Below the pieces are notes generated by a model. The model was not told the origin of the DNA and searched no databases. It saw nothing but the letters and a program-made list of their open reading frames with translations. Shown here piece by piece: positions 3,529 to 6,537 of a stretch of 64,000 bases of DNA. The position numbers and the translations under genes are program-made. Origin of the DNA: a virus; IMG/VR virus record IMGVR_UViG_3300017971_000001, positions 181,277 to 245,276 of that record. One strand, given 5' to 3'. Positions within the stretch are counted from its first letter, which is position 1. The number at the start of each line of letters is the position of its first letter.

Positions 3529-3806
3529 CCCAGGACCGCCTACTCGCGTTCGAGCGCCTGCTCGAAGACGGGATCGACGAGACCCTCTTCGGCCACCCGC
3601 CGGACTCCAAAGACAAGGAGGCATGGAACCGTTACGCCCAGGGCGTGGACTTGCTCGAGCCGGCCCTCGAAGCGTTCAAGAGTTCGGTCTGCGAGGCGCT
3701 CGGCTGCGCGCCTGTGATCAACGACTACTGCATGAGGCCGAAGTGCGATCACTGTGCATTCTGCGGCAAGTCTATGCCCGGAGAGGCGCCTAGAGAACAA
3801 GATTAA
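3504..3806 (+). CDS. small protein with a C-terminal four-cysteine zinc site
   Basis: A 100-residue protein starting at GTG 3504, with AAGGTGA five bases upstream, overlapping the previous gene. Residues 8-70 look helical and acidic; the C-terminus has Cys-x4-Cys-x2-Cys-x2-Cys (CMRPKCDHCAFC), a probable zinc site. It ends 4 bases before the first tRNA-like element. Family unknown. Confidence 0.6.
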   Translation: MAEFRKLMTQDRLLAFERLLEDGIDETLFGHPPDSKDKEAWNRYAQGVDLLEPALEAFKSSVCEALGCAPVINDYCMRPKCDHCAFCGKSMPGEAPREQD

Positions 3807-3810
3807 ACAA

Positions 3811-3885
3811 GCGCGGGTAGCTCAACGAGGAGAGCGGCCAGTGAAATACCTGGAAGGGAGCGGCGTGCAAGTCCCGCCCCGCGCA
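3811..3885 (+). tRNA. tRNA-like element 1, possibly Phe(GAA), aberrant arms
   Basis: A 7-bp acceptor stem (GCGCGGG with CCCGCGC) and a D arm (GCTC...GAGC) are perfect. The anticodon arm has only CCAG/CTGG with an eight-base loop containing TGAA, so the best reading is GAA. The T arm GCGG-C-G...C-CCGC needs a bulged C, and its loop reads TGCAAGT instead of TTCRANT. No CCA is encoded. Either a poorly functional tRNA or a tRNA mimic. Confidence 0.5.
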
Positions 3886-3889
3886 ACAC

Positions 3890-3956
3890 GGTCCGGTAGC
3901 TCAATGAAGAGCGTAGCCTTCGGGCTGAGGTGGTAGGTCACACCTGCCCCGGACCA
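3890..3956 (+). tRNA. tRNA-like element 2 with a shortened anticodon arm
   Basis: Only 67 bases long. The acceptor stem (GGTCCGG with CCGGACC) is perfect, the D arm is normal, and the T stem GGTAG/CTGCC pairs, but its loop is GTCACAC rather than the usual T-loop. Where the anticodon arm should be there is a tight AGCC-TTCG-GGCT hairpin with a four-base loop, so no anticodon can be presented normally. It looks like a tRNA mimic or a decayed tRNA. Confidence 0.4.
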
Positions 3957-3963
3957 ACAACAA

Positions 3964-4128
3964 GAGCCTGTAGCTCAGAGGGCTCATGGGATACCCGCGA
4001 CGGAGTGCGCACGAAGTCGTCGGTAGAGCATGGGGGCAAGGATCGTCGGTCGGGCTAGCTACCCAATCGTCTCTTTGCTGGAGCACCTGCCTAAAAAGCA
4101 GGAGGTCGCGAGGTTCGAATCCCGCCAA
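3964..4128 (+). other. tRNA remnant(s): interrupted D arm, anticodon and T arms
   Basis: TAGCTCAG at about 3971 and TCGGTAGAGCA at about 4018 look like two halves of one D arm separated by some 40 bases. A second TAGCT at 4058 is followed by GGAGCA at 4080, a 5-bp anticodon stem CCTGC/GCAGG with loop CTAAAAA, and a T arm with the classical TTCGAAT loop but a bulged A. No matching acceptor stem is found, because the next tRNA begins at 4129. This reads as rearranged or insertion-split tRNA sequence. Confidence 0.4.
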
Positions 4129-4204
4129 GCAGGAGTAGCTCAGCTACGAGAGAGCGTTCGGCCTCGAGTCGAAAGGTCGCGGCGTGCAATCCCCGCCTCC
4201 TGCA
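4129..4204 (+). tRNA. tRNA-like element 4, anticodon TCG or CGA unclear
   Basis: The acceptor stem GCAGGAG/CTCCTGC is perfect and the D arm is normal. The anticodon stem TTCGG/TCGAA encloses CCTCGAG; position 33 is C, not T, so the anticodon is TCG (Arg) by position, or CGA (Ser) if the frame shifts. The T arm has the same bulged C and TGCAA loop as element 1. Class I size (76 bases), no encoded CCA. Confidence 0.5.
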
Positions 4205-4240
4205 TTCTTCGGATCCAAGTTTCCACGCCTCGGCGTGAGG

Positions 4241-4290
4241 AAAGACCGTAGCTCGTGCAAGGCGGGCTGGATCCATGTCGGTGGTCTTTG
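4241..4290 (+). other. 50-base mini tRNA-like element
   Basis: AAAGACC at 4241-4247 can pair with GGTCTTT at 4283-4289, and TAGCTC follows the 5' strand as in a D arm, but there is no room for both an anticodon arm and a T arm. It may be a deleted tRNA. Its place between two fuller tRNA genes supports tRNA ancestry. Confidence 0.3.
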
Positions 4291-4337
4291 ATAATCTTTC
4301 CCGCGAACTAGACCTCCGGTCTTTGAAATCTGATCAA

Positions 4338-4412
4338 CCGCCAGTAGCTCAGTTGGTAGAGCGTCGCGTCTAAGCAGCGCGAAGGTCAAGGGTTCGAGTC
4401 CCTTCCGGCGGA
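4338..4412 (+). tRNA. tRNA gene, best fit Leu(AAG) but anticodon uncertain
   Basis: The most normal tRNA of the cluster: acceptor CCGCCAG/CCGGCGG with one A-C mismatch, a canonical D arm (TAGCTCAGTTGGTAGAGC), and a perfect T arm AAGGG-TTCGAGT-CCCTT. The anticodon stem CGCGT/GCGCG encloses CTAAGCA, giving AAG, but this requires an extra base between D arm and anticodon arm. A Leu tRNA would normally have a long variable arm, which is missing, so identity is open. No CCA encoded. Confidence 0.7.
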
Positions 4413-4415
4413 ACA

Positions 4416-5413
4416 CGAGCGAGTCCAGCAGACCGACCCGAACAGAGATCACGAGCGAGCCGACGAGCAAGACACGAACAGCGACTTCGAGCGAGCCGCT
4501 ACCGACGACACGAGCATGGTATGCGAACGAGCAATGAGTTCGAATTCGATCGAAGGTGAAGAGCGAGTCGACTTTGCGGAATCGACCGTAGCAGATCAAC
4601 GAGCCACCAGGTAAGAACCGACCCTAAGCAGCGAACGAGCCGCTAGAAGCGAATCGATCATGGCGAGCTAGCGAGCCATTGCCCCAGACACGAGCACCAA
4701 GGATAAGCGAGCTAAGGAACTCCGAGTCGAACATAGCCCATGAGCGAGCCCCTCATGCAGACACGATCAGAGATCGGGACCGAGCGCTCTGCGACGACAC
4801 GATCAAAGCCCGCGACCGACCGAATCTTGAGGTGAGAATCGATCCAGCATTGCGAGTGAGCCATGGACCGGGAAACGAGAAGCAAGCACAAGCGAGTCTC
4901 AGAACACGATCCGAACAACGACGAGGAACGAGCCTTAGCGCTCGACGCGAACGTCAAGAACAAGCGAGCCTCAGATCCACGACCTGACCGAAGAGGTAAA
5001 GCGAACCATGCGCCGGGAATCGATCGCTACGAACAAGTGATCCGTAGCCTTCGAATCGAACGAAGAGAACGTGAGAGCCCCAGTTAGGGACCCGATCTAG
5101 ACGAACGAGCGAGCCTTAATGTCCGACACGAGCAGCAGGAGCGGGAGCGAGTCCTGGTAGTCGAACCGACCAGACAGCCACGAACGAGCCTTTCACGTCG
5201 ACGCGAGCATAGACGTGGATCGAGTCCTCAGCACAACGAATCGAGCATGGCGGAAGAGCGAGCCCTCGGCGTCGAAATGATTCATGAATCAAGAGCGAGT
5301 CGAACCCGATAACTCGAGCAGGGTTCCCGACCGAGCAGCCACTATCACCTAGACAAGATCGTGAAGAAGGAGCGAGCCTAAGCTCTGGACTTCAGCGTGA
5401 CCGACAAGCGAGC
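4416..5413 (+). repeat. non-coding array of 28 two-box units with 36-base period
   Basis: No credible gene lies between 4413 and 5463. Aligning by eye, a box CGAG(C/T)C or close variant starts at 4420, 4456, 4492, 4528, 4564, 4600, 4636, 4672 and 4708 (exactly 36 apart), then at 4745, 4781, 4821, 4857, 4893, 4929, 4965, 5002, 5038, 5074, 5110, 5148, 5185, 5221, 5259, 5296, 5332, 5373 and 5409. In most units a second box CGANC begins 19 bases after the first. The remaining bases vary freely. The + strand is rich in A and G. The array follows the tRNA cluster and ends at a strong terminator. Possible roles: iterons of an origin or partition site, a protein-binding scaffold, or a repetitive RNA. 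Confidence 0.8.
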
Positions 5414-5449
5414 CCGCCCGCCGGACCCCGGCAGGCGGGCTTCTTTTTT
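5412..5449 (+). terminator. strong intrinsic terminator closing the tRNA/array region
   Basis: GCCCGCC (5412-5418) pairs with GGCGGGC (5434-5440), and GCCGG (5420-5424) with CCGGC (5428-5432), leaving one C-A mismatch and a three-base loop; TTCTTTTTT follows at 5441-5449. The stem begins inside the last array unit. Confidence 0.85.
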
Positions 5450-5463
5450 GCGAGAATGAAACC

Positions 5464-6537
5464 ATGACCTACCGAATCAATGCCCGCGGTGACCGCGGGC
5501 GGCGCGAGCTCGAGCGGGCAGGCGACGTCGAGGCTCAGGCTTCCGCGCTGAACGAGCGCCGTAGGACCGGAGAGATCAGCGAGGGTGCCCTCTCTGCGCT
5601 CGTAGACCTTGGCTACGAACCTGCGTCCCTGCTCGTTGGTCGCGAAGGTGGAACGGCGCCGATCTACCGCTGGTCGAGCTTGCGCTACCCCGACCGTGAG
5701 ATCTTCGACGTCGAGCGCCGGATCCATGACTACGGGAAGAAGGTGATCGCTCACTTCGCCTTCGAGTCGATCGCAACGTTGATCGGCCTGGCGAATCAGC
5801 GCGGAATGCTGGTCCACGACAGCAACCGAGACACCGAGCTCTTCAAGTCTGGCATGCGCGCGGTCCCCTTCGGTGAGATCGGTGTCGACGAGATCGTGGT
5901 CGAATACGGACTCGCGCCGCTGGCCTATATCGACCTCTGCGCCGAGGTGCTCGAGGACCCGTCCACCATGCTTCCCAACGCAGCTGAGATTCGAGAGATC
6001 GAGACCCAACTGCGCGATATGCAGGCCCAAGAGGAAGAGGGTCGCCAGGTCGACGACGAGATCAACGAGCTCGAGGGCCGCCTCTACTACGCCCAGAACC
6101 CAGGTCAGTACGCCCGGGACATGAGGGACGCGGCTCACGTTGCCTCTGAGCACGCTCGCGACGAAGCCGAAGGGGCCGCTTTTCATTTCTCGGATCAGAG
6201 CTTGTCGCTTCCGCTGCTCTGGTACGCGCTGGCGGAGGCGTGTGCCTCGCTGATCGATATCTTCTTCGGGTTTCGAATGCTGGAAGGAGAGAGTTTCTCG
6301 TTCACCCAGTCCGGCACGACCTACCTGCCCAACGAGGACCTCAGCCCACGCAGTCTGCTCGAGGTCATGGCGAACTGCGCCTACGGCTACGGCTACACGA
6401 ACGACCCTACGAACTTTCACCGTCCGTTCGGGGTTGCGATCGGCGGTTTCGACAGCATGTCCAAGCACTTCTGGCCGAGATTCGTCTCGGACTTTTCTCC
6501 GGACATGATCGAAACCATTCTTGAGGAGGGGTTGTGA
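5464..6537 (+). CDS. helical-module protein, unknown function
   Basis: 357 residues. The N-terminal 60 residues (GRRELERAGD..., then LSALVDLGYEPASLL) match the module shared with many genes in this window: an Arg/Glu helix, a G-D turn, a second helix and a LGxxPA segment. The rest is mixed helical with an acidic stretch around residues 175-215 and no catalytic motif that I recognise. It is the first of three adjacent family members (5464, 6534, 7373) with overlapping starts and stops. Confidence 0.7.
   Translation: MTYRINARGDRGRRELERAGDVEAQASALNERRRTGEISEGALSALVDLGYEPASLLVGREGGTAPIYRWSSLRYPDREIFDVERRIHDYGKKVIAHFAFESIATLIGLANQRGMLVHDSNRDTELFKSGMRAVPFGEIGVDEIVVEYGLAPLAYIDLCAEVLEDPSTMLPNAAEIREIETQLRDMQAQEEEGRQVDDEINELEGRLYYAQNPGQYARDMRDAAHVASEHARDEAEGAAFHFSDQSLSLPLLWYALAEACASLIDIFFGFRMLEGESFSFTQSGTTYLPNEDLSPRSLLEVMANCAYGYGYTNDPTNFHRPFGVAIGGFDSMSKHFWPRFVSDFSPDMIETILEEGL

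What the first reader, a model, noticed from the sequence alone, without database searches (positions are those of the whole stretch)
4416..5413. One-kilobase non-coding array of 28 two-box units with a 36-base period
Box CGAG(C/T)C starts at exact 36-base steps from 4420 to 4708 and keeps that step, with a few small insertions, to 5409. A second box CGANC lies 19 bases after the first in most units (for example 4475, 4511, 4547, 4583, 4619, 4655, 4691). Sequence between boxes is unconserved, so this is neither CRISPR nor a simple tandem duplication; box spacing itself seems selected. No reading frame explains it. It could be an iteron-type origin or partition site bound by a cooperative protein, or a regularly decorated RNA. 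It lies between tRNA-like genes and a strong terminator.
Basis: partly seen in the sequence, partly recalled or inferred. Interest (0 to 1): 0.93.

Follow-up and report, generated by a model that had tools for sequence, protein, structure and literature searches.

The report
Phage guide-RNA (TIGR) array after tRNA
The one-kilobase array is a store of 27 paired short guide sequences of the recently described TIGR-Tas type (RNA-guided DNA targeting, found mainly in phages), unusual here because it sits behind a tRNA gene about 75 kb from the only recognisable Tas gene, which carries an early stop codon.

Summary
In detail: 36-base autocorrelation 12 s.d. above shuffles, 28 box positions in register over 4418-5414, 12% T, a strong terminator at the end. 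It is neither an iteron nor a partition site. It is a TIGR array (Tandem Interspaced Guide RNA; Faure et al. 2025, PMC12045711): edge repeat (gAGCGAGYC), spacer A, loop repeat (GAnnCGAnCa), spacer B, in 36-nt units ending in a terminal edge repeat plus terminator. A pattern from this array pulled at least 120 stretches (102 arrays) out of IMG/VR; where a Tas gene lies in the DNA held, 76 of 76 arrays are on its strand at a median 40 nt, and flanking bases of the two repeats covary (98/98, 87/90). The window's own 245-kb virus record holds one such array and one Tas gene (E=1e-46, 42% identical to array-linked Tas proteins), but 75 kb apart; that gene has an in-frame TAG at an otherwise invariant Trp. 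No spacer targets were found. New: the only array lies far from tas, directly behind a tRNA-Leu; a second phage has a tRNA-cluster array 22 kb from its tas. Known kind of system, unusual layout; function in the phage unresolved.

The parts
4338..4412 (+). tRNA-Leu (anticodon AAG); probable 5' leader of the array transcript (co-transcription inferred)
   Evidence: ARAGORN, Rfam tRNA 55.4 bits; no sigma-70 promoter-like site in 3600-5600
4416..5414 (+). [quoted passage not shown]
   Evidence: only array in the record
4418..4425 (+). first edge repeat (AGCGAGTC)
4427..4434 (+). spacer A core of unit 1 (AGCAGACC)
   Evidence: layout
4435..4444 (+). loop repeat of unit 1 (GACCCGAACA)
4445..4452 (+). 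spacer B core of unit 1 (GAGATCAC)
   Evidence: layout
5407..5414 (+). terminal edge repeat (AGCGAGCC), whose 3' part is built into the terminator stem
5410..5449 (+). intrinsic terminator (GC-rich hairpin followed by TTCTTTTTT)
   Evidence: MFE -30.1 kcal/mol, z=-4.58; U-run read from sequence
3890..3956 (+). divergent tRNA in the same cluster upstream
   Evidence: Rfam tRNA 41.1 bits
4129..4204 (+). divergent tRNA in the same cluster upstream
   Evidence: Rfam tRNA 38.9 bits

Best explanation
It is a TIGR array. The transcript, probably read through from tRNA-Leu and ended by the terminator at 5410-5449, would be cut within each edge repeat into about 27 tigRNAs of 36 nt. Each tigRNA holds two short spacers of 8-9 nt and is bound by a dimer of a Nop-domain Tas protein, one protomer on the edge repeat and one on the loop repeat. 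Spacers A and B would pair with opposite strands of one 16-18 bp DNA target. The matching protein is a TasA-type gene (no nuclease domain found) at record position 109591-110742, minus strand, about 75 kb away. Shown here: array anatomy, homology to many Tas-linked arrays, one Tas gene in the same record, the in-frame TAG in that gene. Inferred from Faure et al.: processing, dimer binding, DNA targeting. Unknown: targets, and whether the system still works, since the assembled tas reading frame is interrupted.
For: 36-nt units with two alternating repeats and two short variable spacers, as in the published definition. Terminal edge repeat plus terminator, also as published. The array pattern retrieves 102 arrays in IMG/VR; Salicola phage CGphi29 (found with one of these related arrays) is the paper's SpTIGR. 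76 of 76 arrays with a Tas in the held DNA share its strand, median distance 40 nt. Edge and loop bases covary: offsets 0/18 98 of 98 (shuffles at most 89), offsets 8/26 87 of 90 (at most 67). The array-linked proteins match solved TasR 9mty (E=1.5e-56) and TasH 21kl (E=1.2e-33). The own record has one Tas match, E=1.1e-46, 42-43% identical to array-linked Tas; alone it matches TasR 9mty at 2e-5. No second array in the record, so array and gene pair one to one.
Against: The array is about 75 kb from tas, whereas published arrays lie beside it. The tas frame has a TAG at an otherwise invariant Trp, and TAG is an ordinary stop here (60 of 177 ORFs), so the protein as assembled would be truncated. 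Box C (CCA) is weak in this array and several units have damaged boxes. No spacer-pair target was found in the own genome or related loci beyond swapped-pair controls. No RNA data exist.
Confidence: 0.93

Rival explanations
1. A relic: a TIGR array whose Tas protein was lost to a nonsense mutation and which is now decaying.
For: In-frame TAG at an invariant Trp; repeats less uniform than in most IMG/VR arrays (though those were selected by pattern); no targets found.
Against: 27 units still in register, low T in the repeats, intact terminator, and a tas frame otherwise open end to end: at most recent decay. A single-base assembly error or a minority allele would explain the TAG equally well.
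Confidence: 0.3
2. DNA-level array (iterons, parS-like site or operator) bound by a cooperative protein.
For: Regular spacing and long length.
Against: 36 and 18 bp are not multiples of the helical repeat; in relatives the array is on the strand of tas in 76 of 76 cases; it ends in an intrinsic terminator; the homologues tested by Faure et al. are transcribed and processed.
Confidence: 0.02
3. CRISPR array or other single-repeat memory.
For: Repeats with variable spacers.
Against: Two alternating 8-10 nt repeats and 8-9 nt spacers; the linked gene family is Tas in relatives and in this record.
Confidence: 0.01
4. Chance periodicity or degraded coding repeat.
For: None found.
Against: z=12 against dinucleotide shuffles; no frame open across it; homologous arrays in about a hundred contigs with unrelated spacers.
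Confidence: 0.005

Closest known systems
TIGR-Tas dual-repeat arrays (Faure et al. 2025, PMC12045711)
   Different: Array is about 75 kb from tas instead of beside it, directly behind a tRNA gene; 27 units where 5-15 are most common; edge box C reduced to YC; tas frame interrupted by TAG.
SpTIGR of Salicola phage CGphi29 (TasH)
   Same: Same unit length and repeat type; found independently by DNA similarity to a related array.
   Different: Its effector has an HNH nuclease and its locus is compact; the Tas here shows no nuclease domain.
IS110 transposases with bridge RNA
   Same: Array-linked Tas proteins match Pfam Transposase_20 of IS110 and weakly the IS621 structure 8wt6.
   Different: No array of guides, DEDD nuclease present, a transposon; no DEDD domain was seen here.
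Box C/D snoRNA with Nop5
   Same: Two guides between box C and D motifs on a Nop-domain dimer (by the published structure of TasR).
   Different: Directs RNA methylation, uses K-turns and a further protein; none of that was seen or expected here.

Membership tests
TIGR array | Units of about 36 nt with two distinct alternating repeats of 8-12 nt | tested here: met
TIGR array | Two variable spacers of about 8-12 nt per unit, differing between units | tested here: met
   (27 different pairs)
TIGR array | Box D and box C bases shared between edge and loop repeat | tested here: met
   Strong across 102 arrays. In this array GA/GA (box D) and C at offsets 7/25 agree; offset 8/26 is not conserved in its edge repeat
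[quoted passage not shown]
TIGR array | tas gene next to the array (the paper looked within 5 kb of tas) | tested here: not met
   Only tas in the record is about 75 kb away. Treated as locus layout, not as exclusion: distal arrays also occur in records G001 and G010, which have near-tas arrays too
TIGR array | Processed into 36-nt RNAs bound by Tas | not testable with these tools
   needs RNA data
Tas protein (TasA) | Nop-domain protein related to TasR/TasH, without nuclease domain | tested here: met
   by sequence; no nuclease family in the Pfam scan. Fold not predicted
Tas protein (TasA) | Intact reading frame | tested here: not met
   TAG at an otherwise invariant Trp in the assembled sequence
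CRISPR array | Single repeat of 25-36 nt with spacers of similar size | tested here: not met

The most novel reading that the evidence does not exclude
TIGR arrays can be trans-acting, tRNA-led transcription units: large phages place guide arrays inside tRNA gene clusters far from tas, so that tRNA expression and tRNA processing deliver the precursor of the guide RNAs. Such arrays are missed by surveys that look only a few kilobases around tas.
Probability: 0.35. Interest if true: 0.6.

Novelty: new member of a known kind. Interest (0 to 1): 0.5.

Why it matters
TIGR-Tas was described in 2025 and its natural targets, its spacer source and its RNA-processing enzyme are unknown. This locus shows that an array can sit far from tas and directly behind a tRNA, which bears on processing (tRNA maturation enzymes become candidates) and means that array-first searches, as done here with one short DNA pattern, will find arrays that gene-first searches miss.

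Tried and rejected
Neighbour proteins as handles for related loci: none of three window proteins, nor the Tas protein itself, found relatives by the peptide-pattern scans. Spacer targets: 27 spacer pairs against the own 245 kb (array masked) with gaps 0-2 in three geometries gave no more matches than rotated pairs; 1,026 units from 102 arrays against 1.3 Mb gave 10 exact matches against 2-7 in controls, but fewer one-mismatch matches than all five controls (162 against 185-216), so no signal. Stop-codon recoding as an escape for the tas TAG: rejected, since TAG ends 60 of 177 long ORFs (a crude greedy ORF set) and the tas frame itself ends in TAG. RNA secondary structure of the array: none beyond shuffles (z +0.8 and +1.4). 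ParB-like partners: both genes flanking tas carry a DGQH motif by eye, but Pfam gives nothing significant and they do not resemble each other; only one of 81 other Tas loci has a convincing DGQH gene right beside tas (L072).

Full report
OBSERVATION. The array is real. In 4413-5413 the identity at lag 36 is 0.456 against 0.272 in dinucleotide-preserving shuffles (z=12), with harmonics at 72 and 108. A chain alignment gives 28 box positions from 4418 to 5407, mostly 36 apart, with eight steps of 37-41. The first box reads AGCGAGYC, the second GAnnCGAnCa at offset 17-26; the 8-9 bases after each are close to unconserved. T is 12% over the array, though the spacers alone are more balanced (18% T). 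No long frame crosses it. It starts a few bases after a tRNA-Leu and runs into a terminator hairpin of -30 kcal/mol (z=-4.6) followed by TTCTTTTTT.

RELATIVES. Filtering for low spacer redundancy left 102 arrays. They share one plan: [G]AGCGAGYC[A/G], 8-9 variable bases, [G]AGAnAACC[A/G] or a variant, 8-9 variable bases. Within an array the base at offset 0 equals that at 18 (98 of 98, shuffles at most 89) and the base at offset 8 equals that at 26 (87 of 90, shuffles at most 67). The edge box is constant across loci partly because it was the search pattern. Where a member of one protein family (alignment A1) lies in the DNA held, the array is on its strand in 76 of 76 cases, at a median 40 nt.

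IDENTITY. This is the TIGR-Tas system of Faure et al. (PMC12045711): alternating edge and loop repeats, two short spacers per 36-nt unit, a terminal edge repeat followed by a rho-independent terminator, Nop-domain Tas proteins. The array-linked family matches the solved TasR (9mty, E=1.5e-56) and TasH (21kl, E=1.2e-33), and weakly the IS621 transposase (that 9mty is TasR is my reading of the entry, which the database names only as an IS110-type C-terminal domain protein). Pfam calls the family Transposase_20 of IS110. Salicola phage CGphi29, recovered by DNA similarity, is the paper's SpTIGR example.

THE RECORD'S OWN SYSTEM. The window is 181277-245276 of a 245,276-base IMG/VR virus record. 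That record has one array (chain score 92.9, next best 6.2) and one Tas match (109684-110589, minus, E=1.1e-46), about 75 kb from the array. The frame (L128:9592-10743, minus) is 42-43% identical to array-linked Tas proteins, has an extra segment of about 60 residues in mid-protein, and shows no nuclease domain by Pfam, so it is TasA-like. One in-frame TAG stands where all aligned relatives have Trp. TAG is an ordinary stop in this record, so the gene as assembled is broken; one metagenomic assembly cannot tell mutation from error. The genes flanking tas each carry a DGQH motif, which recalls the ParB-like partners of some tasA genes in the paper, but no profile search supports that; the downstream one belongs to phrog_5931 of unknown function.

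REMOTE ARRAYS. Loci whose held DNA lacked tas come from 22 records, of which 10 have a tas match elsewhere. In G001 (72 kb) arrays flank tas at 44-49.5 kb and another array lies at 67.2-68.2 kb, 22 kb from tas and inside a cluster of ten tRNA genes. In G010 (96 kb) an array on the opposite strand lies 18.5 kb from tas. So distal arrays occur, and tRNA linkage occurs at least twice. What is particular to the window's record is that its only array is the distal one. Two cases do not establish a functional link to tRNAs; phage non-coding genes often cluster.

MECHANISM. By the published biochemistry, the transcript should be cut in each edge repeat into 36-nt tigRNAs whose two spacers pair with opposite strands of one DNA site. 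From the stated cut rule (5' to the nucleotide pairing with spacer base 5, 8-nt 3' overhangs) I derived the target as spacer A followed by the reverse complement of spacer B. With that geometry and its mirror, no target excess was found in the own genome or in 1.3 Mb of related loci. Without a nuclease, TasA would bind or bend the target; what that does for the phage is unknown.

VERDICT. Observation confirmed; the DNA-site interpretation is replaced by a known class of guide-RNA array. It is a new member with an unusual layout, and its activity is in doubt because of the interrupted tas frame.

Noticed in passing
window 3814-4204: Cluster of divergent tRNA-like genes upstream of the array that ARAGORN does not call; Rfam gives 41.1 and 38.9 bits for two (3890-3956, 4129-4204) and a partial match at 4077-4125 whose anticodon loop reads CTAAAAA.
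   Followed up: partly
G000:C1:128149-128557 (L129:8150-8558, minus): The virus record encodes a tmRNA (predicted tag ADQKAHLPTATSRA) next to a tRNA-Gly, plus tRNA-Thr and tRNA-Glu about 8 kb away.
   Followed up: no
window 12363-46641: Several proteins carry repeated Arg-rich RRNP/KNP motifs and 'GMGxYMEL'-like stretches, perhaps targeting or cleavage signals of this phage group.
   Followed up: no
L050 6300-7180 (IMGVR_UViG_3300036863_000086): TIGR array of the GTGCGAGCCA/GTGAAATCCA type inside a ten-tRNA cluster, 22 kb from the same record's tas and its neighbouring arrays.
   Followed up: partly
L062, L027, L087 (one 56.8-kb record): One phage record carries many TIGR arrays on both strands around a single tas gene, far more units than the usual 5-15.
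   Followed up: no
L128:6731-7741 (minus): A tyrosine recombinase (Pfam Phage_integrase, E=4e-23) lies downstream of tas and its neighbour genes on the same strand; the paper speculates that TasA may aid integrases.
   Followed up: no
L072 224-1147: A DGQHR (ParB-like) gene ends 15 nt before tas, resembling the published TasParB arrangement.
   Followed up: no
L019, L067, L096: Pattern hits that are short near-perfect tandem repeats, not TIGR arrays; excluded from the counts by the spacer-diversity filter.
   Followed up: yes
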